Under the pieces are notes generated by a model that worked only from the letters and a program-made list of their open reading frames with translations, was not told the origin of the DNA and searched no databases. Both the position numbers and the translations under genes were made by a program. A stretch of 64,000 bases of DNA from Chloranthus sessilifolius (Eukaryota; Streptophyta; Magnoliopsida; Chloranthales; Chloranthaceae): assembly GCA_021018995.1 (NCBI GenBank), contig CM037588.1, positions 35,089,000 to 35,152,999 on the forward strand. The letters run 5' to 3'. Below are positions 2,061-63,328 of the stretch, piece after piece. Position 1 is the first letter of the stretch, and each line of letters opens with the position of its first letter.

Positions 2061-2310
2061 AATTGCGCACTCAGTGTGGAGTGCGCAATTCGATTAAGCG
2101 TTTCATCCGAAGTGCTTGATCGAAGAAGCTTAGGGGTCAAGGACTGTAAGACTAGGTCGGACATAGGCTAATTGCCCGCCAGTGGTGGGGCGCTCAATCG
2201 GATTGCGCGTGCCATGTGGCACGCATAATCGAGTCTCAAGGTGGTATGGGAAAGGAAGTACTGTCTAAAAAGGGGGCTGATTGCATGTGTGTGGTTTTAC
2301 GCACATAATT
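2061..2310. repeat. Cluster of GCGC-type inverted repeats in Tat-minus LTR
   Basis: At 2061-2090 the arms AATTGCGCAC and GTGCGCAATT are perfect reverse complements around a 10-nt loop. At 2201-2230 a second inverted repeat has arms GATTGCGCGTGCC and GGCACGCATAATC. At 2280-2310 a third pairs ATTGCATGTGTG with ACGCACATAAT. A weaker one lies at 2171-2200. The same GCGCGTGAT/ATTGCGCAC vocabulary recurs at 4542-4876 and 6972-7320, ahead of TATA-like boxes on the other strand. Confidence 0.75.
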
Positions 2311-2611
2311 TGGGGCTGCCCGGGTCCGGCCCGGGTTTGAAATGCGAGACTATTATTTCTGCCTGCATTCTGACTATATACTATTATTTCAATATATAGT
2401 CTCCCTACGTCGGGATCAGAGCCACAGAGCTATTGCTTCAGCTTGCGTTCAGCCATGTACTATTGTTACAGTGCATGGTTCCCAAGTTAGGGTTATGGGG
2501 CCTGAGCCACAGAGCTATTATTTTAATATATGGTCCCAATTGGAGTTATGAGGTCAATGGTTGACTAAATAGATTTATATATTCTAAGAGGGAAAAATGG
2601 GAGTGTCTACA

Positions 2612-2626
2612 GATGCCCCTCTTTGG
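2612..2626 (-). other. Polypurine tract of Tat-minus
   Basis: The minus strand reads CCAAAGAGGGGCATC immediately before the LTR start TGTAGAC. Tat-lineage elements prime plus-strand DNA synthesis from such a tract. The tract of Tat-plus at 61691-61707 has the same layout. Confidence 0.8.
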
Positions 2627-2829
2627 GGCGCTCTTGCAAAGTAAGAACGCATCGAAGAAGTAAACACCCCTGATTCGAGGTGTCTTCTCGTTTCTCTTGG
2701 AAAATCATAAATGTGAACTGGGGATGCTGACATGACATGCTTGGCTTTCTTATGTATCAGTGTAAGCTAAAATGGAGCATTCGGGGGCCCAGTGGTAGCT
2801 GTCGAAAGACGTGTTGCATGACATGGATG

Positions 2830-3070
2830 CCCAGGGGCGATCCCGTCGCGTATCGCGACTTGCTATCATAGACAGTCAACGGGGGAAGTCAGTGTTTCCT
2901 ACTTCGCGGGTGTAAGGGGCATCCCGTTGCATGGCGCAACCTACTGCGAGTGATAGTCAAATAGAAAGGAGAAACACCATATCCTAATCTGTGGGTGCAA
3001 GGGGCATCCCATCACATGTCACGACCTACTGCAAGGGGCAGTCAAATAGAGGGATATGACGCAGTTGAGG
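2830..3070. repeat. Three imperfect ~85 bp tandem repeats
   Basis: Three units begin near 2830, 2910 and 2995. Each holds a block AGGGGC.ATCCC followed by a short GC-rich palindrome-like stretch, CTACTGC and AGTCAA. The copies have diverged clearly, so this is an old array in the non-coding 3' part of Tat-minus. Confidence 0.65.
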
Positions 3071-4541: not shown

Positions 4542-4876
4542 ATGATTGCACACTTGTTTCCTAGCGTGTGATCATAGGTTCAAAGGGTTGTTTCCACATG
4601 TCTGAATGTGCGTGTGATTGTATTACGCACTTTCATCATGGCGCGTGATTGAGGAGTCACCAGGTCATTGTGCGGGCGACCTTTCGTATTGCACGGCGTG
4701 TGTGGGTCGTTTGCTAGGGTTGCGCGGTCTATAACGAGAGCGAGATCGGACCATCGCATAGTTGGCATGGGAGATAGCTTATTTGCACACTTCGGTTAAG
4801 GTGTGTGTTTTGAATTGTGTGCTGTATGCGTCGCGCGTGATCAAGTTAAGCACGCGTATCTTAGCGCGTGATTAAG
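4542..4876. repeat. GCGCGTGAT-type inverted-repeat cluster upstream of an internal TATA box
   Basis: Inverted repeats pair ATGATTGCACAC with GCGTGTGATCAT (4542-4575) and TTACGCAC with GCGCGTGAT (4623-4650). A run of GCGCGTGAT, GCACGCG and GCGCGTGATT lies at 4830-4872. These words match the cluster in the LTR of the same element (2061-2310). Confidence 0.65.
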
Positions 4877-6971: not shown

Positions 6972-7320
6972 CGATTGCGCGCTTTACTACGGGCGCATAA
7001 GCTAATTTCGTACCAGCATGGGAGCATGCATTTCGGAGGGTCAGAAGGTCACTGTCGCATCGACTTTCATGCATGGTATGGGGCGCAGGATTAAGGCGGT
7101 GACTGGTCATTGTTGTAGCGACTGATGACATTCACACACTCAGATTTGGGCGCTTGAAGTGATTACACACCTAATGAATGGCACGCAACCAGGTGGTCGG
7201 GTTGGGTTGAGCAGGCGACAATTCGTTTACGCGCTCGGGGATGGGTGCTTGATCCGAATTAAGCGTAGGGACTATGGTGCGTGATTCCATCAAGTGTGTG
7301 TGTTCAAGCACGTGATTCAG
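6972..7320. repeat. GCGC-type inverted-repeat cluster upstream of the opposite-strand gene
   Basis: The cluster contains GATTGCGCGC...GGGCGCATAA (6972-7000), GGGCGCTTGAAGTGATTACACAC, ACGCGCTC, GAATTAAGCGT, GTGCGTGATT and AAGCACGTGATT. The vocabulary is that of the LTR cluster at 2061-2310. A TATA box follows within 10 nt. Confidence 0.65.
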
Positions 7321-7508: not shown

Positions 7509-10500
7509 ATGGAGGGTGAGGGTATTAGTGGGCATGATCTTACTATTTATGAGTTGGAGAGAATGATGATGGTGGAGGTAGGTGAGACGTCCAAGGCTCG
7601 GACTTATGTTGTCGTCGGGGAGGATGTCGGGGAGATAGTTGGGGAGGAGTTACCAGAGGTTGACTAGATGGAGGTCTGGGAGGAGGTACTCGAGATTGAG
7701 TAGGGCATAGTTGAGGAGGAGGGTGAGAGGGCTGAGGGTAATAGAGCTGGAGATGAGGGGGTTGAGGAGCACCAGGGTGAGTAGCATTGGGATCGCGGAC
7801 ACTTCCCACTGGAGGATTTCTTTGCTCAAGGCTGGGTAGGTACCCTTTAGCAAGAGTTTCTTCACTTATCTTAGGCATTTAGGTTATGACATAGACTTGT
7901 TAGGATCTGAAAACCCTTTTAATTTATGTCGAACCTACATCGATTATTGATTGTGTGCTCACTCATGCATCATGACGACATGTAGAGATAGGCCATGTTT
8001 CAGTTCAGTGGTTCTTATCATATTTTTTGTATTCGTTATGAGTTATTATTATGTTTTTAGGGCATATCTCATTTTCTTTTAGCTTTACATATGGGCTCGT
8101 CTTTCGTCATGGGTATGCATATTAGTCTTATTTTGTTCTGCTTGTGTTTCGTTTGATTAGAGCCCCCGCAACTGGCTATCAGCTCTGTGTGGACCGAGTC
8201 CCATACTTGGTATTGCATCTTGCCAGAGTTTCAGCGAGTGTAGTTGGTATCTTTTGCCTTCGGGCCGATCCTGGAGCTGGAGCCCTTTCAGGTCGATCGT
8301 GGCTTGATTGCGGTGATTCTGGAGAGGAGGGAGTCGCATCAGGTGCATCTCTTTCTAGTTGGTATGTTGCTACAAACTCCAGAGGACTAGATTTGTATCA
8401 CCAATCTTCGTTTTGAGGGTGAGCCATTCACGAGGCGGATGGCGGGAAATTATTTGGAGGTGTGCGAGGAGATCCTGGGTGTACCATATAGGTCGAGTGG
8501 ATTGGGATCGGGTGTAGTTCGAGTCACCTGATTCTTTGATACGTTCGCTAGCAGTTTCATCCCTCTGAGGTGTCAGTCAGAGGCAAGGGCATCTTATGAG
8601 GCGTGTTGTGTGGTGGTAGCGGGTCGGGAGCCCGTGGTTGAGCCGGGGTTGGCAGCGGATAGAGTGCTCTGAGCTTTCTTGATGCACTTCCTCTGTGCAG
8701 TACTTTTTTGTTCTTCGACTCGAGGTGCATCACCGGGTTGTTTTTTATGGTTCTCTGGGACTTGGATAGGGTCCCTACATACGCATGGGGTGCGGCCGTA
8801 TTAGCGCATCTCTATGAGCAGGTTTATTGTCTGGGATGGGGTGTCATGACGATCGGAGGTTTCCTTCCCTTCCTCCAGGTGAGTTTTAGTTAATCAGTGT
8901 CATGACGTCATTAATTTTTTTTTCTTGTCGTTTATTAGTAACATCTATTTAGCATTTCTCTTTTATGTTATTTATTTTTTAGTTCTGGGCATATGATCAT
9001 TTCCCTTTTCTTCATCTGGGAGTTCTGCTGGAGGTGATGTTCACGTTCCCACGGATGCGCAAGTGGAGGGAGGCATTGAGGGGTCGTCGCTGGTCCTCGA
9101 ATCTTCAGACCGTGTGCGGCCTTTTCAAGGATATGCACACGGGGTAGGTATATATATCATCATGTGTATATTTTTTTTAATTTTATTTTGGTTTTTTTTA
9201 GGCTCTGAGGATTCATTGATGGGTTGGCTTGCTTATTTGGTTAGGTGATTTGGAGGACATACGTGGCCGAGGAGGATGCGTGTATGCCAGTGATCCAGTC
9301 TAGTCAGCCCTTTTTCGACGTGGACATATGGGTCTATTATTTTGAGAGGGTCGAGAGGATCCCCGTATCTCGGGTGGTGCAGCAGCTAGGGCTCGCTCAA
9401 GGAGTCCCTCCGGAGATTTGCCATAAGGTGGCGAAGAGGATGACCGGCCCCCCTAGCCAGAAATTTACAGAGCGGATGGCGCTTCAGATAACAGATTTTA
9501 GAGCTGGGGGGACCAGGGTCACAGGGGCGTGTGACGAGGTGGATGTCCGAGAGTATAGGAGGTGGTTTAGCGCATTGGGTGGTGGGTGCCTTTTCACACG
9601 TCCCTTCCACGGGAGTTGCTCTTTCACGATCGGCGGGTTGTAGTTGGCGCCGACATTGAGGGAGAGGCTGGCTGCATTGGAGCAGGGCCATCTCATAGCA
9701 AGCATGCAGGGGGTGATAGATGCTCTCCATAGAGCTATGGAGCAGATGGGGTGTGCTCCTCTTCTGGATGAGGAGATGTTGCACTCCTTGGTCCTCTCAG
9801 TGGCTCAAGCTAGGGCAGCAGAAGATGAGTTGGGGGCTCGACTGGCATAGACTCGACGGCTCTTGGTGAGTTAATTTATTTATTTTTATATTATGTGGAC
9901 TTGGTCTTCTGGTCGTTCTGACATGGTTGTGGTGTCATGTTTTATCTTGGACAGTCTGAGAGGGAGGCCAAGGTTGCCCGCCAGGAGGCCCTACTGGAGG
10001 TTTATCGCAGCCAGCAGTAGGCTGATTGAGAGGTAGCAGCTAGTCTGTGATTTGAGATTGATCAATTGGTAAGTGTCTATATGAACATGGTTTTGTTTGA
10101 TTGTTAGCGTGAGTTCGCCAACTGATGTGTTTATTATTATTTCTAGAAAGACGAGCTCACTGTCGGAGGTCCCACTCCAGCATTTGATCTGTCTTCAGTT
10201 GCTTCCTCTAGTGGGGAGGATCCAGTGATGGCTTAGCTTCGAGCCAAGCAAGAGCATTGGGTAAGTTTCTTTCAATCTCTTATCTCATTTGTGTTATTGC
10301 ATTAGTTTGTTGGGTGTTATTATTTTACTTTCTTAATAGTTTACTAACATCGCATGGTTACCGAGATCTTCGAGGATCTTAGGAGGCGGCTACTTTGCCT
10401 CTAGTCAAGAGTCGTGTATAGTTTTTGGTATGGTGTTCTTCAATTTTGGTTATTTCATTCTATTTATTCTATCATATTTTGTGTTGGCTTGTTTGGTTCT

Positions 10501-15855: not shown

Positions 15856-16866
15856 TGTTGTCGCTCCAAGTGTGCCATAATTATATGCATTATGAATCAA
15901 AAATTAAAGAATTAAAGAATGCTAGGTTATATGGATGTTAACTTATAAAAGGGATATCAGCACATTGGGGCTAACACTGGCCTGCAAGATCAGGGCCAAT
16001 TGTAGCAAGTTTTAAAAGTAAGTATTTCAAGATCGTCCACAGAGAAGTTTGTCTAAACAGAGAGATAAACCTCCAGATCTGTGCTACCAGATCTGGCTCT
16101 ATAATTATCTATAAAAAAGAATAGATAAAAGAGAGTGTTGGATTGTGTCACATTTAACTATAAGCAAATAAAGAAAAGAACTAATTACATGATCCAGATC
16201 CGAGTTGGGGAGATGTTTAAAATAAGACAAATGCAGAAATAATAGCTTCATGTACTTTAGCCTCTGAATTTTAATGGAGAATCTGTAGTTCAACAGAGCA
16301 GATTCAATCTTCATCTGGCTACCAGCACAGATGTAAGAGAAATAAATCCGAATTAAGGAATAGGTTTAAACTTATGGCTATGATCTGTCCAATGGTCACA
16401 GATCATCCAATAGTTGTGGCCTATTCTTTAGTTCAGAACATGAACATCACTGTAAATGCTACTTGAATTAGGTTACCAACGCTAATTCGCACAGGGATGA
16501 TGAATTAAGGGAAGTTGGATGCGGATAAGTGAATCTAAAGAAGTCTAATGCACTAAGGTGATCATTCAGAACCCTCGACATGACTCCAATGGAGAAGACA
16601 CAAATTACAAAGAACCTTTAAAATCCAACGTTACAATTACAGAGCACGGCTTCTTAGAGAGCCCTCGGACTTCTGATCGAGCTTCTCGAGAGCCCTCGAT
16701 TCTGATCTTGAATCGGAACTTGGAAGTACAAATCACTCACAATGGCTCTCAAAGGTAAACTACAAGAAGGGATTACAGGGGGTTCAGATAAGCTATCTGA
16801 CCGGAATGAGGGAAACAGAGATGAAAACTCTAAAATCTGGATACCCAAATTGGGCAAATGGTTCGT

Positions 16867-16876
16867 CTATTTATAG
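16867..16876 (-). promoter_or_regulatory. TATA box of the solo LTR
   Basis: The minus strand reads CTATAAATAG, about 900 nt from the LTR start, downstream of the motif array. Confidence 0.6.
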
Positions 16877-17232
16877 TTTTCCCTAAGCCAGCTCAGATGT
16901 GTATCAACCAATCAGATTTGGATAGATCTGTATCAACCAATAGGAGTCGAGCACCAGGTTCCAGATCTGTTCTGGCCTATCAGAAATGCTTCATCTGGTT
17001 CAGCCAATCAGGAAACAAAGGCATCAATTCTGTTATGTAATTCAAAAATCTGTTTGAGCTTCTAGAAGTTCCCGCCAAGTAATTTCATCTTTGGGTGTTC
17101 ACATGGGGTGGAATATGCCTTTGGTTCGTGCTCAGAATCTTCCGGAATGTCCTTGGGTTTTAAAACGCATTGGGGCGCGTGTAAAGTTTCCTGAAATACC
17201 CTTCGGACGAGCTGCAAATCCCCAGAATGCCA

Positions 17233-17520
17233 TTTCGCATAGTTTAAGGGCTTTTTCGCAAAGTAGTTTGGCTCCAGAAGCTCTCTTCGCAAAGCATTTT
17301 GGCTTCAGGAGATCTTTTTGCAAAGCATTTTGGCTTCAGGAGATCTTTTCGCAAAGGACTTCTCTTCTTTTCGCAGAGTATTTTCTTCTTTTCGCAAAGT
17401 TCAAAGTTCTTTGCGAATAGTAGAAGTTCTTTGTGAATAGTAGAAGTTCTTTGCGAATTGAACTCTAGGCTCCCATTCTTCTTTGCGAATTGACTTTTAA
17501 CTTGATTTTTTCTTTGCGAA
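17233..17520. repeat. TTCGCAAAG motif array in the solo LTR
   Basis: About twelve copies of TTCGCAAAG or its reverse complement CTTTGCGAA occur. Left copies read TTCGCAAAG (near 17233, 17252, 17285, 17315, 17346, 17368, 17389). Right copies read CTTTGCGAA (17409, 17429, 17449, 17480, 17511). The orientation switch at about 17400 makes the whole array a large imperfect inverted repeat. A 30-nt unit with GGCTTCAGGAGATC is tandemly repeated at 17300-17350. Confidence 0.85.
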
Positions 17521-17775
17521 TGGCTCTCTTTCTTGCTTCAGGTCTTTGTCTGCTCTTTTAGACCCTCTTTAGCCATTGTTGAGGCTATTTCTTCACTCCC
17601 TCTTTGAGCTTGACATGCGTTGTCAGCTTTTTGATCATTTTAGGATGGTTTTCGGATTTGGACCTGTCTTTTTGGTTAGCTGCAATATGAACACTAAAGC
17701 ACTTATTTAGTCTTCTCAAGGGTCTTTCAAGGCTCATGTTTAGGGGTGAAAAATGGTATTTTTCACTACTTAACA

Positions 17776-20234: not shown

Positions 20235-20508
20235 TGTTAAGTGGTGAAAAATGTCACTTTTCACCCTTTAACCTGACCATTGATAGACCTACGAGCACAC
20301 TAATAAGCTGCTGTCAAGTGTATTTTGTAAACAGTAATGAAAGAGGACACTAATGCAGAAAACCACTCAAGAATGCCCAAAAAGGGGCCATCTCTCAGCA
20401 CAGGACAAACCCAGCAACAGCACACCAGAAGGTAGCACACCACTGGACCCTTGGGGCCCATGACTGCACCAGAGCAAGGCAAAGGAGGTGAAAACAGGCT
20501 GAAAACAT

Positions 20509-20970
20509 CCTATCGATTGGTCACCTGAAGACATCGACAGGAGCTGAAAGCAAGAAAGGAAGAATTCATGCAGTTGAAGAGGTTTCCGATAGGATCTCAA
20601 GGCAGATGAAGGATGGATTCGTGTGGATTAAGAAGTTCGATATGATCCATGAACCTATCGAACAGTTGAAAGGAAGGAAGGAACCATCCTGTCGAAAACT
20701 GCCCGAGGCATCAAGGGAACCTATTGAATGGTTTCTTCAAACCTATCGAAGGGAACTTGAAATGATGGCAGGCATAGCAGAGCCTGTCGAAACGGTTCTC
20801 CAACCTATCGAAGAAGCCCTTCCAACCTGTCGAATACTCCAGGCCAAGGGCTGAGAATGCTGAGAGAAGACTCATCCTATAGGAACCTGTTGAAGAGATC
20901 TAGGAACCTAGCAAAAGGACCAAAATGCTCTATTTGAACCTGTCGAAAGCTTCCTGAACCTATCAAAATC
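20509..20970. repeat. AACCTATCGAA motif array in Athila-plus LTR
   Basis: About thirteen copies of AACCT(A/G)TCGAA or close variants occur at roughly 20509, 20531, 20586 (inverse), 20652, 20687, 20718, 20739, 20782, 20802, 20824, 20884, 20937 and 20957. Spacing is 15-60 nt. The core TCGA is palindromic and CpG-containing. The array lies 270-740 nt from the LTR start. Confidence 0.85.
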
Positions 20971-21177
20971 ATGTGCAGAACTTCTCAGAAATTTAGCTGT
21001 GCACACGTTGTGATTTGGTGACCTGCTGTAGGCAACCCAAGTCACTTGGTGGCCGGCATGATGGTTCCAGACGATGCCCTAGGAAACCCTAACTGACCCA
21101 CGTGCTCTAACAGAACTCTAACAAACTCTGAGGACGTTCTAGAAGGGATTTTTGGCAGGAAAAATAAAGGAGAAAGC

Positions 21178-21186
21178 AATATATAG
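21178..21186 (+). promoter_or_regulatory. TATA-like box of Athila-plus LTR
   Basis: CAATATATAG followed by AGACCCCC, about 945 nt from the LTR start. The Tat-plus LTR has a similar TATA box followed by AGAGACCCCC. Confidence 0.5.
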
Positions 21187-21670
21187 AGACCCCCAATTAC
21201 AATTGGGGGAGATGGAGATCTGAGCAAAATTATGGAGATTAGAGCTTGCAAAGAAATTCCATTTCCCTCCTTTAGCCTAATCATGGTTGGCTAATTCCCT
21301 TAGAGTAGCGAGGAGAGAAGTTAGATCTGTAATTGGGTAAGGTTAAGAGTGCTATTGTAGGTTCCTAGCTGCACTGACTACAAATCTGAGAGTATTTCCA
21401 TTATAGAGTGACCTTGTTTGCAATGTTAATGCTATTTTTAATACTTTAATTAGATCTAAAGTTCCTTTGGTTCCATTTGGTGATCGATCAGATCTGTGTA
21501 GAGGAGTCTATATATCAGCTCACCCAGTTAATTGGTAGACCCTTGGATACCACCTGATCTCCCTGGATCTGATGCTCCTGTGATTCCATAAGTCTGTGAC
21601 CTAGGAATTACAACATCTGTAGTGGTTTTAATTATTCTAATTGGTGCTCTGGCTTTGAAGGAGATCCCTG

Positions 21671-21818
21671 GGATGGTTTGTGACCATTAAAGTGGGCAGA
21701 TCATAACCTTCAGATGAATCTAAGCCCAGGCTCCAATTGGATTCATCTGCTGCAATCCATGGATTCGATAAAGTCTATAGGATGGTCTGTGACCATTAAA
21801 GTGGACAGATCATAGCCT
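21671..21818 (+). repeat. Two copies of a conserved Athila LTR box
   Basis: GATGGTTTGTGACCATTAAA (from 21673) and GATGGTCTGTGACCATTAAA (from 21781) are each followed by GTGG.CAGATCATA.CC. In the same element-sense orientation the box occurs twice in each Athila-minus LTR and once, shortened, in the solo LTR. It contains a GGTC.GTGACC near-palindrome. Confidence 0.75.
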
Positions 21819-22317
21819 TAGGACCAGGTGGATCCTGTGATTTGGAGTGGAATTTATACCCTGCAACTGTGCTTATAGCCATTTGAGGGAATTGTGTGCT
21901 CTGAACCTCTGTAGCACAATTAATTGAATTTGATTTCAGTGAAAACCAATCTCCAAGCTACTCTTCTCCATATTCAGTTCTTTTTACCACTTTTCCCTGC
22001 AAGATCTAAGATCCAAACCTCGATCCAAGTTAGTTTATGTTTAATTTTTGCATTAGTTTAAGTAACAATCCATTTCAAACCTCTCCCCTGTCTTTTAGCT
22101 AAATTAGCCATAGTTAGGGTGCCAGATCTAATACAGATCTGGAGATTTATCATACTTTTAAACTAACCTCCCTGTGGACATTCCCTTATTCACCATTTTT
22201 TGTAAAACTTGCCACAACAGACCCTGATTACTTGTAGGTCTGTATGAGTGTGTTCTGCCTAATTTTAGATAATTTTAGATCCTATTTGAGGGAAGGCAAA
22301 TAACACCAACAAGTTTT

Positions 22318-22563: not shown

Positions 22564-22947
22564 TGTAGACACCCAAATTCGGCCCAAGGCCCGATCAGTC
22601 TGTACTGCGGGAGAAATGCACCCCTGTGCTTCCGATGGCACCCCTGAACCCTTGGAAATCTATCTAGACCTTTAGGAATCACCTAAAACCCATTAGAACC
22701 ATTCCCCCAACCCTTAGAGATCACCCGTAAACCCTTGGATTCCTTCCCAAACTCAATTTAAACCCTTCTGAGCATTTTATGGGAGGAGAGCTACAACTTT
22801 TTATATATACCACTTCTGAGAATGAGCCACATATAATTGGAAAGAGGACTTCTCTAGCTTTCCAACGAGCCAAAGATCACCCAATTTGGAGTTGTGATTC
22901 AAAAGTTATGGCCGTTTGAAGTTTCACATAAAATGACAACTTTTGCT

Positions 22948-23170
22948 TAGGCGTATGTAATACATACGCCTAGCCAATTTGGCCCTAGATTGGTCAGGCG
23001 TATATATTATATACGCCTGGCATTTTTGGGCCAAATTTGGCCAGGCGTATATAATACATACGCCCAGCATAGGTGGCCACCAACACGGGCACCCATATTC
23101 TCAGATCCCCCCTGGTTTTCTTGAGTTTTACTGTGCATAAGCTGGGCGTATGTAATATATACGCCCAGCT
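22948..23170. repeat. Four GGCGTATATA palindromes in Tat-plus 5' LTR
   Basis: Copies lie at 22948-22972, 22995-23019, 23041-23068 and 23140-23170. Each is an inverted repeat with arms such as CAGGCGTATATA and TATATACGCCTG around a single central base. The last extends to 15-nt arms beginning AGCTGGGCGTATGTA. Each contains two CpG and a TATATA core. Confidence 0.95.
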
Positions 23171-27830: not shown

Positions 27831-27840
27831 GTTTATATAG
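27831..27840 (-). promoter_or_regulatory. TATA box of Athila-minus left LTR
   Basis: The minus strand reads CTATATAAAC, about 1,000 nt from the LTR start. It is identical in the right LTR at 43116-43125. Confidence 0.65.
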
Positions 27841-41643: not shown

Positions 41644-44113
41644 TGTTGGGCTATTTTTTAAGTGCTTGCTACTGACTTTATTGAAGACAGTGATAAGAAT
41701 GGAATGAATGAAAATTTGATGAAAGGTGGATTGAAAATTATGGAGCAGCAAGCCTAGAATATGCACAATCCTGCAAGATACAGGGCCTGTTGTAGCAAGT
41801 TTTGATAAGTAAGAGTTTGTCCCACAGGGAAGTTGATCTTAAGCTCCAAGGGAGCCATCTTTAGTAGGCCCTCCAGATCTGACTACAGATCTGGCAATCC
41901 TAAATGGAAGGGGATTTAGGGTCACTAAACTCTAAATTCTAAGGTATCCTAATGTCTAAACTATAGAAAGGATTAAGAAAGAAGATGGTGTGAGAAAATA
42001 AATATAAAAGGGTGAGAAGTATGCTATTAGGTTCAGATCTGATGGGTTTCATGACTCAAATTCAGATCTGCTGCTATAGAAGTCCTGTCTAGTGGCTACA
42101 TTATCACCACTGAGGAGAAAGAATCCAACTCATCTCTGTGCCATGATCCAATCCCTTTATGGCTATAACCTGTCCACTTAAATGGTTACAAACTATCCAA
42201 TTGGGGAACCACAATCCAGAGATGGGTCAGAACAAGTTTATCATTGTAGGCACTACTTCATCCAGGCTACAAGCACAAGAATCCATAGGGAACCTCAACC
42301 TCTAAAGTGCTATGTGTGGAGCTAGGCCTGCATGGGAGCATGTTAGCCTAGACACATAAAACCAGCAAGAGTTTGAGTGCAGCCTTAGATCCAGCTGTCC
42401 ACTGCTTTAGAGAGACTGCAGTGATCCAGTCGCAAGCCTACAATCTTTATAACAAAACCAGATTTGCCATCTGATGGCGGGTCTATACACCTACAGGGGA
42501 GTTTGTCTCAGCACAATCTCTCACAGGGCTACAAGCACAAGTGCAGAGAAGAACAATCCGTCTTGAGTCTGTGGGTTGGCTTCACTCTAAGGCTATAACC
42601 TGTCCACTTAAATGGTCACAGACTATCCCAGAGGCTATCCTCCTCACAAAGCTCAAGATAGAACAAGAAACATTGCTGCCACCACCATGTTCACAAGGCT
42701 ACAAAAGCTCATTGCACCCATGGGGACTTCAGATCTAGTGGGTTCTATGGTGGGGCTAGGCCTATATGGGAGCATGTTAGCCTAGACACACAGGTCACTT
42801 GGATCTGAGTAAACCATAAAATCAGTCCTCCTTTGCTTGCAATACATCCTAGCAATGGAGGATCTCGAGGTAGCAGCCTTGTATAGAACAACTCACAAAC
42901 AGAAATCCTATAAATGTAAAACACCCTATCATAAAACTCCATTAATCTATTCCAAATAGTCATATAAAGGCATAGCCAGCAAATACTGGACTATGGAGAG
43001 AAGAAAAAGTAAAAAGAAATCTACCTAAACCTTACTAGAAATCTACAGCTACTACAAGAAGAATATAGACAATATTCTATTCTATCAGGTCTCTCTAAAC
43101 CTAAACAAGGCTTAGGTTTATATAGCAGTTAGTTTGGCGGCGCATTAGGGTTAGGAAACCCTAATTTTAACGATGCCACATGGCCTAATACTATTCCTTG
43201 GATGCCTCGGGGCACGTGTATGAAACTTGGAGCGTTAGAGTGCATGCCCTAATTGTTGGAAGTTCCCAGAATGTCCTCTACAGAAATGAGGGAGAGTTAG
43301 AGTTTAGAGCCTCGCCAGGTAGCACGGGTTTCCAAGACTGTCGCGTGGTAGCACGGTCTTTGCAAGATTAGATTAGCTTAAAATTCTAGCCATCGCAGGG
43401 TTGTCTTAGTTGCAGCTGAAGTAGTCGCGCGATAGAGCATTGAATCGTCGTTGGATTGCTCTGGTCTTCGCGGGATTGCACTTTCCTTCTGAATGGCGTG
43501 GGAATCGCGCGAGCAATTTGTTTCTCAATGGATCTTCGCGAGGATCCTTGAGAGGACGTGATGTGCATTGGCCTCTAAACTGTGCGAGAGGTTTTTCTGA
43601 GGTTTTGCATCCCATGGCCACTACGCGACAGCTGCGCACAGAGATACCAGGAGCCCTCTCTCCTTAGCTGATCTGAGTGAACTGCGCGAGGTTTGAGAGC
43701 TGCTTTCTTGAGCTACGCGAGACTACGCGATCATTTATATTTGAGCTTCGCGAGAGCTGCGCGAACTATGCTGCAGGAGCTCTTCTGTCACTAAACTATG
43801 CGAGAATAGTGCGAACAATTGGTATGATGTCATGGGAAACTCGTGAGGATTGTGCGAGGCAGGCTTTCTGAGTCATGTGAACCTTGCGACGCTCATTTCT
43901 TTCTTTGTTGCTGTTGTGCTCTGCCTTCATGCAGTCAGGCTCTCTGTCTTCCGTTCTTCTGGGGCAAAAGTGGGCTCCTTAGCAGGATTAAGGCCTTATT
44001 ACAGCTGGTATTTATTACCTACAGAACAGGCTTAAAATACTTTTATTAAATGATTAAGGGTCCAACAAAGATTAAGTTAAGGGGTGAAAAGTGGTACTTT
44101 TCAGGTCTTCACA
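41644..44113 (-). mobile_element. Athila-minus 5' LTR (right)
   Basis: The 2,470-bp LTR has the same ends as the left copy. It contains the CGCGAG array (43335-43890), a TATA box (43116-43125) and two Athila boxes (42161-42198, 42591-42629). Its motif array is better preserved than in the left LTR. Confidence 0.93.
43335..43890. repeat. CGCGAG motif array in the right Athila-minus LTR
   Basis: About seventeen words occur, including TGTCGCGTGG, AGTCGCGCGATAG, TTCGCGGGA, AATCGCGCGAG, TTCGCGAGGATC, TACGCGACAGCTGCGC, ACTGCGCGAGG, TACGCGAGACTACGCGATC and TTCGCGAGAGCTGCGCGAA. The array lies 220-780 nt from the LTR start. Confidence 0.85.
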
Positions 44114-54193: not shown

Positions 54194-55698
54194 TCAAGGG
54201 CAGGAACCACGCTTCAAAGTGTTGATCTCTGCAAGAAGAGAGTCGTCACGAGCATTTCGATCGGTCAACCACCTATCATGAAGACTCTTCTGCCGCCTCC
54301 GCGAAGCGTCAGCTGCACTGTGAGACTCAGCCAAAAGCCCAATCAATCGAAGGACCTCGCTCTCGGCCATAACAGCTCTCACCTCCGCCATCTCGGCTCT
54401 GGCCCTCTCCTTCCCAAGGTCTCAGTCAAAGCTAGCTTCTCTACAAAAAGAGACTCAATTTTAGTTCGGAGCACCGTCTCCTTGAATGGCCAGGGCCCCG
54501 TCTCTATCGCATCTACCGAAACCGGGTTAGGAGCAGGCAAGCTCTCAGATGCCAGCCAAACCTCGTAATCAGAAGAGAGGGCACCTCCCTGAGGCAAGCT
54601 ACACATATGCGCTGATTGGCGGGTCTCCCAGAGGGCTGCTATGCGATCTAGGTCACTGAGAGAACCCTGAGAGAATATCAAGGAACACAAGGGCAGCCTC
54701 ACAGTGCACAGCACGTGTTGGGTATATCCGAATTGACGAAGCACCCAAGATGGGAAATAGTAAGTACTACCAGTCAACCCCAAAAGTGTGATGCCCTCAC
54801 AATCCCGAGAGCGGACAATCAGAAAGGTGCCGTCCAACCAGGGAAGCTATCGTTCAACTCGCATCGAGATAGCCAAGCTCGCTTGATGCTCCCATGAGGG
54901 CAACCTCGAGCAAGGATCGAAAAAGCCCCGGGCCTCATCCCCTCTTACCAAGCAAAATCTCGGTACGGGCCCCATGATAGCCAAATGCTCTCCTAGCCAA
55001 ATCTGAATGAGGAGTGGACTCCCGCCAAGAATCTCAACCCAGCTCGAGGTCGAGGCATCCAGGCCCCGATACATCTTAGCCAAGACTAGGTGCACCAATG
55101 AGCGGCCTCCCTCCAATTCGGTCAAAACGTTGCATAACCCGAGGTAAAATGTCTCGCCCCCAATAAAGAAGAGAACTTCCGATAGCAAATAAAGGGCAAA
55201 GGCCTTCACATTGAAAGGATCTCAGACCGGCAACTTTCGAAGACTCGAGTCACCAAAAAGTTCTTTCAGGAATTTCACCAAGCACCTAGTGGGCCTGCCA
55301 GCGAAGCCCTTCTCATACCCACCCTTCTTCAAACCAAGAACCGCGTAGACCGCCTTTGCATACCTTGGTTTGGGCATCACTTGGGCAAGCCCCCGATGCA
55401 TTCTCAAGCCAGTGATAGAGGCTAGCTCCTCCAAAGTTGGGGTAAGCTCCCTGGACCTAAATCTGAAGACATGAGCCCTATGGTTCCATGATGCTAAAGT
55501 CGCCTTTAGGAGGTCAGGCAACAAAGGAACAACAAGGAGAGAGGAAAGATGGGATAACCCGAGGTGATCCAGGGCAGCGAACTCGCCCTCCGCAAAGCTA
55601 GCGCACCACTTTTGCCAATAACTGGGCCTCGAGTCCAAACAGGGAAGTACACTAACCCCATCCCCCGTATGAGAATTTTGACCGGGAAGCGGGTCCAT
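54194..55698 (-). pseudogene. Opposite-strand accessory gene 2 of Tat-plus: DUF7745/PMD-like protein, nearly intact
   Basis: ATG at 55698 (MDPLPGQNSHTGDG) opens a single-exon frame of about 500 codons read against pol. Features: LDSRPSYWQKWCASFAEGEF, LDHLGLSHLSSLL, SWNHRAHVFRFRSRELTPTL then EELASITGLRMHRG, a hydrophobic segment AFALYLLSEVLFFIG, YYFPSWVLRQFGYTQ, and a coiled-coil C-terminus (ESEVLRLIGLLAESHSAADA, LLAEINTLKRG). The W.....F.F...ELTPTLEE block is typical of plant transposon-associated proteins of the DUF7745/plant-mobile-domain kind; assignment is from memory of the pattern. Only a TGA near 55222, a TAG near 54840 and a frameshift near 54400 break it. A frame reading further upstream to 55803 lacks an ATG. 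Function unknown. Confidence 0.7.
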
Positions 55699-55842
55699 AG
55701 ACGTACAAAGATGTCCTATATAAAGCTCAGTCAATGTAGGGTGATGGACTCGCTTATCAAAGAAAAAGAAAAAAAAGAAAGAAAAGGAGGGGCAAAATGG
55801 CAAAGCCCGAGTGAACAGTATGACAAAGAGGGCTGGGCGCGG

Positions 55843-55873: not shown

Positions 55874-55950
55874 GGAGGCGTATATAATATATATGCCCAG
55901 CCAAAAATTCAAATATTTAGCTAAGCATATATAATATATACGCCCAGTAT
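55874..55950. promoter_or_regulatory. Two GGCGTATATA palindromes upstream of opposite-strand gene 2
   Basis: Copies at 55874-55902 (AGGCGTATATA...TATATATGCCC) and 55919-55948 (TAAGCATATATA...TATACGCCCAG) are of the same family as the LTR palindromes. Each has lost one CpG by C-to-T or G-to-A. They sit immediately upstream of the TATA-like box. Confidence 0.85.
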
Positions 55951-56348: not shown

Positions 56349-58606
56349 CTAGTCCTGGGCGGCCCCCTTTGACTTCTTCCGACGTCGGGTCACGCTTTGA
56401 AAGGTACGAGTCTCTCCCACCCGAGTCCATGCCTGAGAGATGCGGCCAAGAAGAGAGCGCGACTCCTTCTCACGAGCACGCTACATAAGCACACGAAGGG
56501 CCATCAATTAGGGAAACAAGCAGAAAGTAAATACGGTCAACATCCACTCACCACCTTGACCTCCCTAAGACCAACAATGTTACGGTAATATTCAGCTTGG
56601 TTTACCGCCGACTCATAATCATGCAGCAAAAAAAAAGGATAAAAAGAGAGGTATCAGTCGCACAGGCCATCAGGTATAATCCAAGGAAACGGGCGGGCAA
56701 GGTAACAAGGGAGAGATTACCCCAGGGATCAGCTTAGGGGGTGGAATCCAGATAGCTTCAGCGGATATACGCGCCTTCTCAGCCATGTCGGCACACATAC
56801 GAGACAAAAAGGCATCATCCAAGCATTTAAAGGTCCCCTGGACCTCAAACCGGAAGCACCAAAGACTCGGAAGGATCGGAAGGTCCCGCATCAAAGATCC
56901 ACTCAGAACAACTGCATCATCTCCCTCATCTGAATCATCACCTTGTCCAAACTATAGAGAGAAACAGTCTTTGTTTAAAAAGTAGGGCAATTAAGGTAGT
57001 CATATGGAAGGAACGATAGGGTAAGGACTCATACCACATCTGATATCCCCCAAGGAAGAGAAGGTTGTCAATGGGGACCCCGTGGTGGAGAAAGAGAGCA
57101 GTGAGCATCTTGATAGAACCTTCGGGAGCCAATACATCGTCTGGAGGAGCTTGGGGCACGGCAAAGAGAGGTTGATACTGATGAACCACCCTCTCCCCTA
57201 AGTAATAGGCCCTAGCCCAGGACCCATAGAAGAAAACAATGCGCCGATCTAACAAAAGGCGAGAGGGGCCCACTGCAGCCAGGTTCCATAAGGGGGATCC
57301 AACGTAGGGATCAAGGATGACCTGCTCAACAAAAGAGAAGGAATTTATACATTTGGTCAGAACCCACAACACAAAAGAGCTATCAAATATTACAAAGAGA
57401 GAAAGTGTTATACCTACTCTAGAATCAGCAGTTCGAACTGAGAGCGTAACCCTAACTCCAAGTGTTTCATACCCACGTCCCGGTGGCGGTTTGCATGCCA
57501 ATTGCTCATAAGGGGGAAGGTGGGGACTTCGGAGAGAAGCAGAGGGCGACCGGGTTGGAAACGCAGATACCCCCACTCCTGAGAAAGCAAACAGATATAA
57601 ACAAATATGCAAAAAAAGAGAAGGGGGGGATGAATTGGGACCAAAAGGTAAATTACCTCAAGAGCAGGCCAGAAGCCCACAGTGGAACTGGAATCCCCAA
57701 GAACGGCTCGCACAAAGCTAGACATGAGCACCGCGTAGCTAGCACCTCCCCAATCGAACTGATGTACGGTGTCCCAGTTCACCATAAGACTGAGTAGGGA
57801 CAATGAGACCCGCCCTCCACTGGTGTTTGAGAGGAGAGTCTTGTCCAAGAGGAACAACAGAGAAATGCGAGCCAACATCAATGCACGCTCTGGCTCGAGG
57901 TAAATGGCCGCATCAGGTTGGCCCAGGTCCACTAGCTCGTGAGACCCGAACAAATCGACCAGCCAAGATAACTTGACTTCAGAGCCACGAACATTCCCGG
58001 AGGTCGGGTAGGCCCCTATCAGCCGAGTCACCTCCTCCCTATCAGGCGTGCGAACAGGTATCACCGGCACCCCTCCAACACGAACCCCAGTGATCATGGA
58101 CCAGTCTGCGGGCATGAGGGCCATCTCAGCCATGGCCATGTGAAATGTCATAGTCTCGGGGCGGAAATGCTCTATCAGGGCCTCAGGTAGGCCGTGTCAG
58201 CCCTCACAGCGGGGCATGAAATGAAGTTCCCAAAACCAGTCTGGGCGAGCAGGTCCTTCACCACCTGGGGAAGATAAAGTACGAGGTGCTGGAGGTCAAA
58301 CCAACCACCCCAGAACATAATGTGTGGTAGGGGCTGCAAACAGAAGGCATCAATCAGATAGGGGCAAGGTGGTATAATGAAGGAAAACAAAAGCAAAAAA
58401 GGGGGGGCTCATCTGTTTACCTGACTGGCGATCCCAAAGTTTGACATGTGGGTATGCTGACAGTGTAGGAGGCCAGTACAAGCGGCCTCACCTTGCATTT
58501 CATACAAAGGCTGAGATGAGCGCTGTGAAACAATGAACTGTTCCCCATGAGGACCATGGGCCATCTTGGGCCCCTCCTGTGGACCTTGCCCTTCGTCACT
58601 AGACAT
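56349..58606 (-). pseudogene. Opposite-strand accessory gene 1 of Tat-plus: spliced plant-mobile-domain protein
   Basis: ATG 58606 (MSSDEGQGPQEGPK) directly follows a splice acceptor. Exons: 58606-58421, 58333-57657, 57578-57414, 57321-57035, 56951-56721, one near 56640-56550, and 56480-56349. Introns have GT-AG ends in the antisense direction and the first junctions agree in phase. PMD signature: LIEHFRPETMTFHM, AEMALMPADWSMITGVRV, RISLLFLLDKTLL, NWDTVHQFDWGGASYAVLM, LGDSSSTVGFWPALE, WGYLRFQPGRP, then RRIVFFYGSWARAYYLG. The C-terminus is basic (VTRRRKKSKGAAQD). Defects: a frameshift near 58185, TAG as last codon of the 57414 exon, and an apparently altered acceptor (AG to AT) near 56625. PMD proteins MAIN/MAIL1 act in transposon silencing in Arabidopsis; here it is element-borne and its role is unknown. 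Confidence 0.8.
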
Positions 58607-59640: not shown

Positions 59641-59657
59641 CCCCTTTGTGCTCGGGC

Positions 59658-59793
59658 TCGGACAGTTTTAAAAACTACCAATTTTTGTCAGGCGTATATA
59701 ATATATATGCCCGGCCATTTTTCACTGCATTTTGGTCAGACGTATATATTATATACACCCGACCAGAAATGGTAGTTTTAAAAAACTGCCCGG
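59658..59793. repeat. Long inverted repeat containing two GGCGTATATA palindromes, upstream of the PMD gene
   Basis: The left arm (59658-59716) and right arm (59733-59793) are imperfect reverse complements over about 58 nt. CAGTTTTAAAAACTACCA pairs with TGGTAGTTTTAAAAAACTG, and the palindrome copies (59687-59716, 59734-59764) pair with each other. The loop is about 16 nt. The block stands where the PMD gene promoter should be. A TTTTTAAAA sequence is the best TATA candidate. Confidence 0.8.
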
Positions 59794-61690
59794 ACATTCT
59801 CTTTGGCTTTGAGGCCCGACGGATGCCCTATGCTATGGACCCTGGCCTAGTCCCCCTTAGGAGCCCATGTACCATCAAGCAATGGTGCATGCATCCCCAA
59901 ACGGCCCTTCGAGCTCTCTTCAGCTGGCCCAAAGGGACCGTGCTACAATAAGCGGATCTAGATCAGCAACCACCCACCAAATGCCCCCATAAAATCATAA
60001 AAATTAAAAAAAAAATGCAACAGTAGTTCTCAAAAGAGTGTCGCAACGCCTGTTTGCCCCACTTCGAGAACCGTGTTATATCAATTCGGAATGGTCGAGC
60101 TCGCCCGAAGGTTCTCGAACCCTATTTTACATAGGGACACCTCAGGCCTGATCCGGCAGGCAAACCAAGGACCCATCACCAGAATGCACACGTCCCTAGG
60201 GGGCGCCGACATGGCAAATTGATCCGCCTAAGGATACATGCAATAAAAAGAAGAAAAAAAAAAGAGATAAGAGAAAAAAATAAAAAAAAAAGAAGAAAAA
60301 ATAATAAAAAAGGAAAAAAAGAAAGAAAAAAGAGAAGAAAGAAAAAAAACAAAAACGAAAAAAAAAAAGAAGAAAAAAGAAAAAAAAAAAAGGAAAAAGA
60401 ATAATAAAAAGAAAAAGAAAGAAAAAATATATATAAACCAATGTAGGTTGACCCCACCTTCCATTCACTCGCTCTGGTCATCCACCTTTGGATTAATGTC
60501 AACCAACTGTGCCCCCGACTTCAGACCATTCGAAAAGTCTATTGTCAGTCGAAACTGACCCATCAAAAATGAAATTACAACCGACCAAACTATGCGCAAA
60601 CATACAGACCGAAGGGCTCATTCCCTTTTATTTCCTTTTACACAGGCTTGAAACCTGTATAGGCACGGTGTCCCTATTGAATGTACGCACTTGCGTCTGG
60701 GTATCCGCAGGATGGTCGTTTGTCCTCGTAAATTGTACCTCAGGGTCGATGCTTCCGTTCGCACCTATTTGCTGCTTATCGCCCCTGATGGGTGTCTGTC
60801 TGTGCATAGTTAGTGAGATGTAATTTCATTAGGGATGGAGGCTAGAATTGACCATCTCTTTCGATGGATGTTTGGTTCTAGCCCAATCTTTCTTAGCTTT
60901 GTCTCGAGTTAAGGCACACCGGTTCATGTGAATTAGGAGCACCTCACCATTGGAACGAGTACATCCCCAAGGTGCACCTATCCCCAGCATAGCGCGCACA
61001 TTCTTAAAGAGTATCAATTGACATCTGATCCACTTAAAGAGTTGTGCAAGAATGAAGTTGCCAGAGGTCCTTGAGCTTTGCTTAGAGGCCTCGAAACAAA
61101 AGAAAATTCAGAAAAGGAAACACAAAAAATTTTACTCTAAAAATGGGCATGCATTCCCAAGAAGTGTTGCGACATCAACATTCGCTCCACTCGGGTAAGT
61201 CATGCTAAAATAACCTCGAGGTTGATGGGTTCGCCCAAAGACTCCGAGCCTTACCTAGGTAAGAGCACCCGTGGCCAATCCAATGGAGCTGTCAGTACCC
61301 CATAGGATTGAATACGTTCTTTAGGCCTTCGCTTTGTGTACTTCGCATCGATCCCGAAGCATAGATCGATCACCCCGTTTCATGGAGCTGCCTGGTTCAG
61401 ATTAATACTCAACATCACCAATTAATAATTTCCCTTAGGAAGTGGACGATATCCTGGCTAGCGGGCATACACTTTTTGTGATCATCGTAGTTATGCCCAG
61501 TAATGTCGCAATGCGCTTGGGGACTGTTAGCTTTGAGGTACGGACGATATCTCAGAATGAGAGGGCTTACGTACACTCACCATCACCATGAATGTTTGAG
61601 AATTGAGTTGAACTAGGAGGACCCATCAAACGTGCTTTGGACCTCTTCGGATGTCTCTTGTCTTTGGCACTCGATCATTAGTGATCGAAT
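59794..61690 (+). other. Tat-plus 3' non-coding region
   Basis: No gene is seen. A purine-rich AAAAGAAG tract lies at 60240-60430. Two diverged copies of an ~85-nt block occur near 60031 and 61159 (GT.GCGAC/GCAAC...TTCG.CC.ACT CG..., each followed by TCGCCC.AAG). An ~95-nt block with GGACGATATC repeats near 61445 and 61540. Long Phe-rich or Lys-rich frames here are products of the purine tract. Confidence 0.6.
60240..60430. repeat. Purine (A/AAG) low-complexity tract
   Basis: About 190 nt of almost pure A and G on the plus strand. It could act as an additional polypurine primer or simply be slippage-generated. Confidence 0.85.
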
Positions 61691-61707
61691 ACCAAAGAGC
61701 GGGCATC
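61691..61707 (+). other. Polypurine tract of Tat-plus
   Basis: ACCAAAGAGCGGGCATC lies directly before the 3' LTR start TGTAGAC. It has one pyrimidine in the core compared with the Tat-minus tract AAAGAGGGGCATC. Confidence 0.8.
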
Positions 61708-63328
61708 TGTAGACACCCAAATTCAGCCCAAGGCCCGATCAGTCTGTACTCCGGGATAAATGCACCCCTGTGCTTCCGATGGCACCCCTGAACACTTGGA
61801 AATCTATCCAGACTTTTAGGAATCACCTAAAACCCATTAGAACCATTCCCCCAACCCTTAGAGATCACCCCTAAACCCTAGGATCCCTTCCCAAACTCAA
61901 TTTAAACCCTTCTGAGCATTTGATGGGAGGAGAGCTACAAATTTTTATATAGACCACTTTTGAGGATGAACCAAATATCATTAAAAAGAGGACTTCTCCA
62001 GCTTTCCAACGAGCCAAAAATCATCCAATTTAGAGTTGTGATTCAAAAGTTATGGTCATTTGAAGTTTCACATAAAATGACAACTTTTGCTCAGGCGTAT
62101 GTATTACATACGCCCAAATTAATTTGGCTCAGATTGGTCGCGATATATTATATACGCCTGGAATTTTTGGGCCAAATTTGGCCGGGCGTATATAATACAT
62201 ACGCCCAACATAGGTGGCCACCAATGCGGGCACCCATCTTCTCAGATCCCCCCTGGATTTCTTGAGTTTTACTGTGCATAAGCTGGGCGTATGTAATATA
62301 TACGCCCAGCTTTGCTACAGTATCTGTCATTAAATGCTCGAATTTCCTACATCTAGTTTGACCCTTTGACCATCCGCTTGATTAAGGTGGGTGTCTTAAG
62401 GTTGGTTGCACCCCCTTTGAGCTTATTGGCAACCCTCAAGTCACCCATGGTCTCACCCCATCATCCGCCATTGAAACCAATTTTCCAAACATCTAGGACC
62501 CTAAAAACCTAGAAAACCTTAGATGGAGGATTACCTAATTGCTAAACCAATTAGCTCTTAAGTAACCCTCTAACCCACCTCTTCTCTATAAATTGAGAGA
62601 CCCCCCTCTTCCCAAAAGGGTTGAAAAAATCAAGGTTGAAAAGATTAGGGTGAAAGCTTGAGTTAGGAGAGAGAGACCCCTAGTGAGAGAAAGTTCTTTT
62701 CTTATATTTTCAACCAGAATTCCAGCATACATAGATCATTTTTTTAAACCCTTTTTAACCATTAGATCTCCCCTTTTAGTTAAAGCTTAGTCCCTAGCTT
62801 CATCCTACACTTCCTATCTACCGAATCGTAGCATTAGAAACCGAATCTCCTATCGTTTAAGCCATTCAAAGCCATCGGAAGCACGCCGAAGCGAAGGTCT
62901 TCCACGGTGCAACAAGGGCTCGTGAGCTTTGGATCACCCCTCTCTTACTCTACCTTCTTAGTGTTTCCTCCGTCCAAGGATTCAAGCCGTTATGCCGCCG
63001 AAATTTTGGTTTGGCTCAAAGCTTGATAGGACCGCATTGCCTTCGGGCAAGGGGAAGCTCCGCCCAATTATTTTCATTTTGGCCATAGATAGAGACCACT
63101 ACATGCGGGTTGATCGGGTGCCTAAACCCTTCCCGATCGATAACTGAAGCCCCTACCCTAGAGCCTTTGGCAAAGACCGGTAAATCAGAGTCATATTTAC
63201 CACTTCGGTGCTCAAAATATTGATTTAAAGGTTTCCCGGGTCACCAAAAGCTCTGGGTGGTGACTCTACATTTTATTCCATCGCGAGTGCATCGCCACGA
63301 CAGGTTCGAGAGGATCCATGCTCCCACA
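61708..63328 (+). mobile_element. Tat-plus 3' LTR
   Basis: The 1,621-bp LTR has the same ends as the 5' LTR and is followed by the TSD GAGTA. Palindrome copies lie at 62092-62116, about 62137-62160 (degraded), 62181-62208 and 62281-62311. The TATA box is changed to CTATAAATTG (62586). Confidence 0.93.
62092..62311. repeat. Four GGCGTATATA palindromes in Tat-plus 3' LTR
   Basis: Positions match the four copies of the 5' LTR. The second has lost its left arm (GGTCGCGATATATTATATACGCC without the AGGCGT), and the fourth (62281-62311) is unchanged. Confidence 0.9.

What the first reader, a model, noticed from the sequence alone, without database searches (positions are those of the whole stretch)
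2061..62311. Each LTR family carries its own CpG-containing short motif array at the same U3 position
Five LTR families here each have a different repeated word: GGCGTATATA palindromes (Tat-plus), GCGCGTGAT/ATTGCGCAC inverted repeats (Tat-minus), TGCGCGAG (Athila-minus), AACCTATCGAA (Athila-plus), TTCGCAAAG (solo Athila). All contain CpG, are repeated about 3-17 times, lie about 240-780 nt from the LTR start, and precede a TATA box. Different sequence with the same architecture suggests recognition by fast-evolving, element-specific factors. A known precedent of this logic is VANC proteins of Arabidopsis VANDAL transposons, which bind short motifs repeated in their own element. For Athila/Tat I know of no such description.
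Basis: partly seen in the sequence, partly recalled or inferred. Interest (0 to 1): 0.93.

Follow-up and report, generated by a model that had tools for sequence, protein, structure and literature searches.

The report
Retrotransposon-specific motif arrays at two promoters
Families of these plant jumping genes each carry their own short DNA word, repeated in the main promoter and repeated again, on otherwise different DNA, in front of an extra gene, as if one family-specific switch protein reads both places.

Summary
The observation largely holds and is wider than reported. Tat-minus fails that test; its motif shows only with a core read from its sequence, and its GCGCGTGAT cluster at 4610-4873 lies outside the LTR. 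Forty-four Athila LTRs (40 hand-picked, 4 from the window) fall into three word classes, 16/9/16, 3 unassigned. At 44 chosen sites the own motif beats every shuffle in 44, a foreign motif in 2 of 176. In Athila and Tat-minus, LTR and internal arrays share at most 13 bp, so they are not copies. The Tat-plus unit is a 21-bp palindrome on a 47-bp lattice, 8,543 exact copies genome-wide, reversed control 0. Closest precedent: Sirevirus repeated motifs. Best reading: a shared binding-site module for both promoters, perhaps read by the element's own accessory protein; the binder is inferred.

The parts
22564..24188 (+). Tat-plus 5' LTR (5-bp target duplication GAGTA on both sides of the element)
   Evidence: self-BLAST 93.4% with 61708-63330; flanks read; PBS-like TGGCGACTCTGCTGGGGA follows
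22950..23165 (.). Tat-plus LTR array: four 21-bp palindromes, spacing 47, 47, 101
61708..63329 (+). Tat-plus 3' LTR
62094..62306 (.). Tat-plus 3' LTR palindrome array
25031..25144 (.). Tat-plus 5'-untranslated array: three palindromes, spacing 47
   Evidence: 3 against 0 in shuffles
56938..58196 (-). antisense PMD gene 1 of Tat-plus (two open pieces; splicing is my guess)
   Evidence: Pfam PF10536 63.9 bits on 57414-58193; no hit on 56938-57654
59691..59759 (.). palindrome pair (spacing 48) about 1.5 kb upstream of antisense PMD gene 1
   Evidence: found at the matching place in 8 of 12 copies
54379..55830 (-). second antisense PMD-like gene of Tat-plus (three open pieces)
   Evidence: three PF10536 hits in profile order, all below cut-off, E 0.069, 0.00031, 0.0086
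55877..55944 (.). palindrome pair (spacing 47) just upstream of PMD-like gene 2
205..2611 (-). Tat-minus 3' LTR (low end approximate)
   Evidence: matches its 5' LTR in L090 (89% and 77% in two pieces); start GTGTCTACA at 2603
2002..2180 (.). Tat-minus LTR array, core GYGCGYRATT
4610..4873 (.). Tat-minus internal array before a TATA-like box at about 4884 (+), upstream of the antisense region
   Evidence: same cluster in 8 of 8 relatives
6973..7317 (.). Tat-minus second internal array, upstream of the antisense PMD gene
   Evidence: matching cluster in 3 of 3 relatives (L099-L101)
9245..9640 (+). Tat-minus antisense PMD fragment
   Evidence: PF10536 E 0.0025, below cut-off; a relative's piece in L101 scores 49.2 bits, over cut-off
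41646..44111 (-). Athila-minus 5' LTR
   Evidence: element nested in Tat-plus, target duplication GAATC
43506..43860 (-). Athila-minus 5' LTR array, CTCGCG[CA]AG
   Evidence: CpG o/e 1.04 and 1.15 in the two 250-bp bins, in a CpG-poor element
26363..28837 (-). Athila-minus 3' LTR
28294..28605 (-). Athila-minus 3' LTR array
34950..35363 (-). Athila-minus internal array (TCGCG words), between integrase and accessory ORF
   Evidence: 15 and 12 CpG per 250 bp; 3 strict words, 0.1 expected, shuffle maximum 1; tied with the shuffle maximum of 3
34271..34762 (-). Athila-minus accessory ORF, lysine-rich start
   Evidence: no Pfam hit over cut-off (Transposase_32 E 0.076)
20235..22310 (+). Athila-plus 5' LTR; Tat-plus is inserted about 250 bp downstream of it
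20507..20967 (+). Athila-plus LTR array, ACCTATCGA
15930..17775 (-). solo Athila LTR (low end approximate; target duplication not established)
17232..17521 (-). solo Athila LTR array, TTCGCAAAG, orientation flips about halfway

Best explanation
Each of these Athila and Tat families uses its own short, mostly CpG-containing word as a repeated protein-binding site. Arrays of it sit in U3 before the LTR TATA box (driving gag-pol RNA) and, separately assembled in most families, at the promoter of the family's accessory gene (antisense PMD genes in Tat, the post-integrase gene in Athila). Shown: the anatomy, family specificity, recurrence across copies, and lack of shared flanks in Athila and Tat-minus. 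Inferred: one sequence-specific factor per family reads both arrays and couples genomic and accessory transcription. My best guess for that factor is the element-encoded accessory protein (PMD in Tat), acting as activator or anti-silencer on its own copies and changing together with its sites, as VANC does in VANDAL.
For: Own motif above all 30 shuffles at 44 of 44 sites; foreign motifs at 2 of 176 site-motif pairs. Athila LTR classes hardly mix. In six LTR-against-internal comparisons within Athila and Tat-minus elements, three gave only 13-bp matches and three none; one internal-against-internal comparison gave none. Tat-plus palindrome: 8,543 exact copies, reversed control 0; of 99 neighbour distances 25 at 46-48, 8 at 94-101, 3 at 141-148, none at 49-93, 102-140 or 149-1800. 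In the Tat-plus LTR array, motif columns vary less than spacers (0.129 against 0.246, 12 sequences). In Athila-minus, 250-bp bins with 10 or more CpG occur only at the LTR arrays and the internal array; yet after insertion array CpGs decay about as fast as others (16 of 42 against 9 of 21), so the words seem kept by the propagating lineage rather than by protection of dead copies. PMD proteins are linked to a promoter motif in Arabidopsis (PMC7156037, PMC9899485, passages).
Against: No binding, expression or methylation data. Direct DNA contact of PMD proteins is unknown (PMC9899485). The Athila accessory ORF pieces scanned gave no Pfam domain over cut-off. Motif columns (0.129) are no more conserved than the LTR flanks (0.143, 0.109), only more than the spacers. 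Internal Athila stretches: with 60 shuffles 5 of 7 exceed all shuffles, the Athila-minus one ties and also holds 3 words of another class, and L087 lacks its class word. Tat-plus: 8 of 12 copies show the PMD-upstream array and 10 of 12 the LTR array. Tat-minus relatives: LTR hits are clear in 3 of 8, one or two hits in 3, none in 2, though not all pieces were known to reach the array. Tat-plus 5'UTR and PMD2 arrays are partly copies of each other.
Confidence: 0.5

Rival explanations
1. Host transcription factors bind the words. Different families have hired different host factors, and both promoters of an element simply use the same one.
For: LTR cis boxes are often sites of stress-related factors in small arrays (stated in PMC2829016, passage). 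The Tat-minus word contains CACGCGC, which I recall as the FHY3/FAR1 site (no call).
Against: One host factor per family does not by itself explain words that differ between related families yet match between an element's two promoters. No survey of host promoters was made.
Confidence: 0.33
2. Tandem duplication or copying of the LTR into the interior, without function.
For: Some arrays are partly tandem (31-bp and 20-bp units in solo Athila); Tat-plus 5'UTR and PMD2 arrays share 73 bp at 86%.
Against: Athila and Tat-minus internal arrays share no flanking sequence with their LTR arrays; spacers diverge faster than words in Tat-plus; the same word at both sites in five families.
Confidence: 0.06
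3. The arrays serve silencing or RNA processing instead: tandem palindromes feed siRNA and RdDM, or form hairpins.
For: The Tat-plus unit is palindromic; tandem repeats can be siRNA sources (passage in PMC10398659).
Against: LTR arrays lie upstream of the TATA-like box, so outside the expected transcript; the words of Athila-plus and Athila-minus are short and not palindromic. No small-RNA data were at hand.
Confidence: 0.08
4. Chance or base composition.
For: In 3 of 12 control stretches the top word was also reached by no shuffle of 25 (Tat-plus ORF 46200-47100, 19 against at most 14; Tat-plus LTR 720-1620, 11 against 10; Athila-minus LTR 900-1800, 10 against 9). In Tat-minus 3400-5000 the top word was within shuffles.
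Against: 40 of 44 Athila LTRs had no shuffle of 25 reaching the count; 44 of 44 sites for the own motif.
Confidence: 0.02

Closest known systems
Sirevirus repeated motifs (Ty1/copia), PMC2829016
   Same: Element-variable palindromic motifs, nearly all with a CpG core, many copies in the LTR before a TATA box, forming CpG islands, and again upstream of the env-like gene (passages).
   Different: There the motifs, except that of Tnd-1, share one CGG-CCG signature. Here the elements are Ty3/gypsy Athila and Tat, words differ between families and are often not palindromic, and in Tat the second gene is antisense and encodes PMD.
VANC and its target motifs in VANDAL DNA transposons, PMC5735166 and PMC10398659
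   Different: Retrotransposons here; no VANC homologue was looked for beyond Pfam scans of some ORFs; binding and demethylation not tested.
Retand and Ogre antisense or extra ORFs with tandem repeats, PMC11963269 and PMC6317226
   Same: Tat-lineage elements with antisense ORFs between pol and the 3' LTR (TRP28 in Retand), PMD in 57% of Ogre elements, and family-specific tandem repeats; a regulatory role was proposed (passages).
   Different: In the passages I saw, nothing links a repeated word in the LTR with the same word at the extra gene.
U3 tandem boxes of Tnt1 and Tto1 (recalled, no call)
   Same: Repeated short activator boxes in U3 that differ between subfamilies.
   Different: Host-factor responsive; no second array at an accessory gene that I recall.

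Membership tests
Sirevirus-type repeated-motif architecture | motif array in LTR before TATA box | tested here: met
   TATA-like boxes read by eye
Sirevirus-type repeated-motif architecture | extra array upstream of the accessory (env-like) gene | tested here: met
   L087 and 4 of 12 Tat-plus copies are exceptions
Sirevirus-type repeated-motif architecture | palindromic CGG-CCG core | tested here: not met
   words seen; none has CGG-CCG as core
Sirevirus (Ty1/copia) | copia-type pol (integrase before RT) | tested here: not met
   RT/RNase H domains precede rve in Tat-plus and Athila-minus
VANC/VANDAL anti-silencing | family-specific short motifs repeated in non-coding regions | tested here: met
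VANC/VANDAL anti-silencing | element-encoded protein binds the motif and removes methylation | not testable with these tools
   needs DAP-seq, EMSA and bisulfite data
Tat/Ogre lineage (Tat-plus) | additional RNase H (RVT_3) and extra ORF with PMD | tested here: met
   PF13456 61.1 bits; PF10536 63.9 bits
Tat/Ogre lineage (Tat-plus) | placement in an RT tree | not tested
   no lineage reference set was used; Ogre is suggested by PMD frequency in PMC6317226 (passage)
Athila lineage | TGTTAAG... LTR start and TGGCGCC primer site | tested here: met

The most novel reading that the evidence does not exclude
Plant Ty3 retrotransposons of the Athila and Tat groups run private regulatory circuits: each family encodes an accessory protein (PMD in Tat) that reads a family-private word at its own LTR and at its own gene, and word and protein change together, a retrotransposon counterpart of VANC-VANDAL. 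Domesticated PMD proteins (MAIN, MAIL1), whose targets in Arabidopsis carry a promoter motif, would then descend from, or parallel, such self-recognition proteins.
Probability: 0.35. Interest if true: 0.92.

Novelty: new variant of a known kind. Interest (0 to 1): 0.74.

Why it matters
What the extra genes of plant Ty3 elements (PMD, TRP28, Athila ORFs) do is an open question. Finding the element's own repeated word at both the LTR and the extra gene's promoter, without shared flanks in most families, gives a concrete, cheap test: does the extra protein bind the word? A yes would extend sequence-specific self-recognition from one DNA-transposon group to abundant plant retrotransposons, and would suggest where host PMD proteins got their promoter-linked role.

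Tried and rejected
'Same U3 place only' was dropped after internal arrays were found. Chance is made very unlikely. LTR-to-interior copying is disfavoured for Athila and Tat-minus. Protection of array CpGs after insertion was rejected for Athila-minus; Tat-plus is inconclusive (2 of 11 array CpGs decayed against 19 of 51 elsewhere). A third PMD element family with arrays was looked for (L102-L104, three of the 128 matches): L103 and L104 hold other CpG palindromic arrays, but L102, which resembles L103, has no such array, so nothing is claimed. Structure prediction of PMD was considered and not run, because only close copies were at hand. The internal array of the window's own Athila-plus was not found: L089 covers its 3' part and 3' LTR, and C5:35153000-35157499 was not fetched. 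In Athila-minus, loose two-mismatch hits of its word also gather weakly elsewhere (4 at element 12750-13000).

Literature searches behind 'not seen in print': (ten; most subscription journals are missing from the library). Papers: passages only of PMC7156037, PMC5735166, PMC2829016, PMC11963269, PMC9289625, PMC6317226, PMC10398659, PMC9899485; others only in search listings. Tnt1/Tto1 boxes and the FHY3/FAR1 site are recalled.
Full report
ANATOMY. The window is a nest of plant Ty3/gypsy elements. Tat-plus sits inside Athila-plus about 250 bp after its LTR, and Athila-minus sits inside Tat-plus; Athila-plus appears to sit inside Tat-minus, whose other end lies beyond it. LTR pairs are 22564-24188/61708-63329 (93.4%) and 26363-28837/41646-44111 (92.5%). 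The flanks show 5-bp duplications GAGTA (Tat-plus) and GAATC (Athila-minus). A solo Athila LTR lies at about 15930-17775. The Tat-minus 5' LTR lies outside the window in L090, and the Athila-plus 3' LTR in L089. The genome is a held 2.17-Gb assembly without name.

WIDER SAMPLE. The Athila LTR start pattern TGTTAAGNNNTGAAAARTNNCANTTTTCACC occurs 7,037 + 7,025 times, reversed control 0. I fetched 40 of the first 100 places listed, all on one contig and chosen by hand for variety of start, so this is not a random sample. With four window LTRs, 40 of 44 had a commonest word that no shuffle of 25 reached; the exceptions were L055 (3 of 25), L057, L081 and the Athila-minus 3' LTR (1 of 25 each). By word, at least five hits being asked, they fall into three classes: CTCGCG[CA]AG 16, TTCG[CA]AAAG 9, ACCTATCGA/GAACCTCTC 16; L050, L055 and L081 are unassigned, and L053 and L054 join the first class with only 5 and 6 hits. 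Classes follow the LTR start variant for the most part, and the second-best class never has more than 4 hits in any of the 44. Hits are densest at 200-600, 200-500 and 400-800 nt respectively, with none in the first 100 nt. L050 and L054 carry CCT[AC]GCGAGC-like words, and L060 (CAG start) ACCT[AG]TCGAGAGG-like words (read by eye). CpG o/e in the zone 200-760 is 0.97, 0.90 and 0.67 in the three classes, against 0.33-0.39 in the rest of the first 900 nt. With words masked it is 0.70, 0.56 and 0.35, so in the first two classes CpG richness goes beyond the words I can call.

THE SECOND ARRAY. This was not in the finding. In Athila-minus, 250-bp bins with 10 or more CpG occur only at the two LTR arrays and at 35363-34950, between integrase and the accessory ORF, where TCGCG words stand. 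In other Athila elements I looked at the same place. Against 60 shuffles the word of the element's own LTR class exceeds all of them in L084 and L085 (12 and 13 hits), L086 and L088 (4 each) and L083 (7). The Athila-minus stretch ties (3 hits, shuffle maximum 3) and also has 3 hits of another class, and L087 has none above shuffles. In Tat-plus the 21-bp palindrome recurs in the 5' untranslated region, about 1.5 kb upstream of antisense PMD gene 1, and immediately upstream of a second antisense PMD-like gene. Among 12 copies chosen for PMD identity of 77-93%, out of 150 scored, the PMD-upstream array is found in 8 (in two of them one unit only) and the LTR array in 10; L033 has an array that I could not place, and L039 has one weak unit. 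In Tat-minus, 8 of 8 relatives hold the internal cluster. Hits in their LTR part are clear in 3 (L095, L097, L098), one or two in 3, none in 2. A further cluster upstream of the PMD gene is present in 3 of 3 pieces, and the PMD gene passes the Pfam cut-off in L101.

TEST OF SPECIFICITY. Five motif definitions against 44 stretches (LTR and accessory-promoter sites of the five families): the own motif exceeds all 30 shuffles at 44 of 44; other motifs do so in 2 of 176 pairs, both the Tat-minus core in Athila-minus-class stretches (L044, L086). Caveats: the definitions came from these families, so the window LTRs are circular, and the stretches were placed where arrays had been seen. The table therefore tests which word sits at a site, not how often sites have arrays. 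Left out of it: L033, L034, L037, L039 and L087, which had no clear internal array, 34 of the 40 fetched LTRs, and L102-L104. Of 12 control stretches from LTR 3' parts, gag and pol, nine are reached by at least one shuffle of 25 and three are not, including a proline-rich coding stretch.

NOT COPIES. BLAST (word size 7, E 0.01) of internal against LTR array within one element gives only 13-bp matches in three Athila comparisons, and none in two Athila and one Tat-minus; the two internal Tat-minus arrays do not match each other either. So these arrays were built, or have diverged, separately around the same word. In Tat-plus the LTR and PMD arrays share about 25 bp, the palindrome plus a few bases, while the 5'UTR and PMD2 arrays share 73 bp.

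TAT-PLUS PALINDROME. Exact GGCGTATATWATATATACGCC occurs 4,305 + 4,238 times, reversed control 0. Among the first 100 places, all on one contig, neighbours are 46-48 bp apart 25 times, 94-101 bp 8 times, 141-148 bp 3 times, and never 49-93, 102-140 or 149-1800 bp apart. In 69 copies from 13 sources, 22 are perfect dyads; changes are commonest at the CpG pairs (3 and 4) and at pair 8/14, where 8 copies changed both sides symmetrically and 17 one side only. Motif columns differ less between copies than spacers in the same array (0.129 against 0.246), though not less than LTR flanks (0.143, 0.109).

MECHANISM. The same word, separately arrayed at two promoters of one element and different at both in other families, is what a shared trans-acting reader would produce (inference). 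For the element-encoded reading: arrays sit at the accessory gene's own promoter, as expected of self-regulation; PMD-dependent promoters in Arabidopsis carry a motif, though direct binding is unknown (PMC9899485, passages); VANC proteins do this in VANDAL elements (PMC5735166, passages). Against it: no Pfam domain over cut-off in the Athila accessory ORF pieces scanned, and no biochemical data. Array CpGs decay after insertion about as fast as others in Athila-minus (16 of 42 against 9 of 21). So the CpG richness looks like a property of the propagating lineage, kept by selection on the words, by local hypomethylation when active, or both.

COMPARISON. The architecture is that of Sirevirus repeated motifs (PMC2829016, passages), which lie in the LTR before TATA and upstream of env in CpG islands. 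It is here found in Ty3/gypsy elements, with words that differ between families and with antisense PMD genes in Tat. PMD in Ogre and antisense ORFs in Retand are known; the shared word was not seen for these lineages in the ten searches listed.

On recounting I corrected the position ranges, the names of unassigned LTRs, the internal Athila counts, the Tat-minus LTR counts and the number of comparisons.

Noticed in passing
window 54379-58196 (-): One Tat-plus element carries two antisense PMD-like genes in tandem, each with its own palindrome pair upstream.
   Followed up: partly
window 28840-43000: Athila-minus body is CpG-poor (o/e 0.06-0.32 in most 1-kb steps), more so than most of the rest of the window.
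   Followed up: partly
G000 C1:88186324, 88192433, 88198552, 88204664: Four Athila LTR starts spaced about 6.1 kb on one strand, looking like a tandem array of a short Athila derivative.
   Followed up: no
L103 3547-3782; L104 2780-3187: Other CpG palindromic arrays (AGTCGATATCGACT; ATCGATTAATCGAT) a few kb upstream of other PMD copies; origin unclear, not seen in L102.
   Followed up: partly
window 17232-17521: In the solo Athila LTR the word TTCGCAAAG runs in one orientation and then flips to the reverse complement about halfway.
   Followed up: no
window 44306-44515: 51-bp tandem repeat rich in GGCCCA words beside the Athila-minus insertion, inside Tat-plus.
   Followed up: no
G000 C2:182456779, C2:182470824, C6:2320605: Three full-length, high-scoring PMD genes without stops, perhaps host genes of the MAIN/MAIL1 type (judged by score only).
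   Followed up: no
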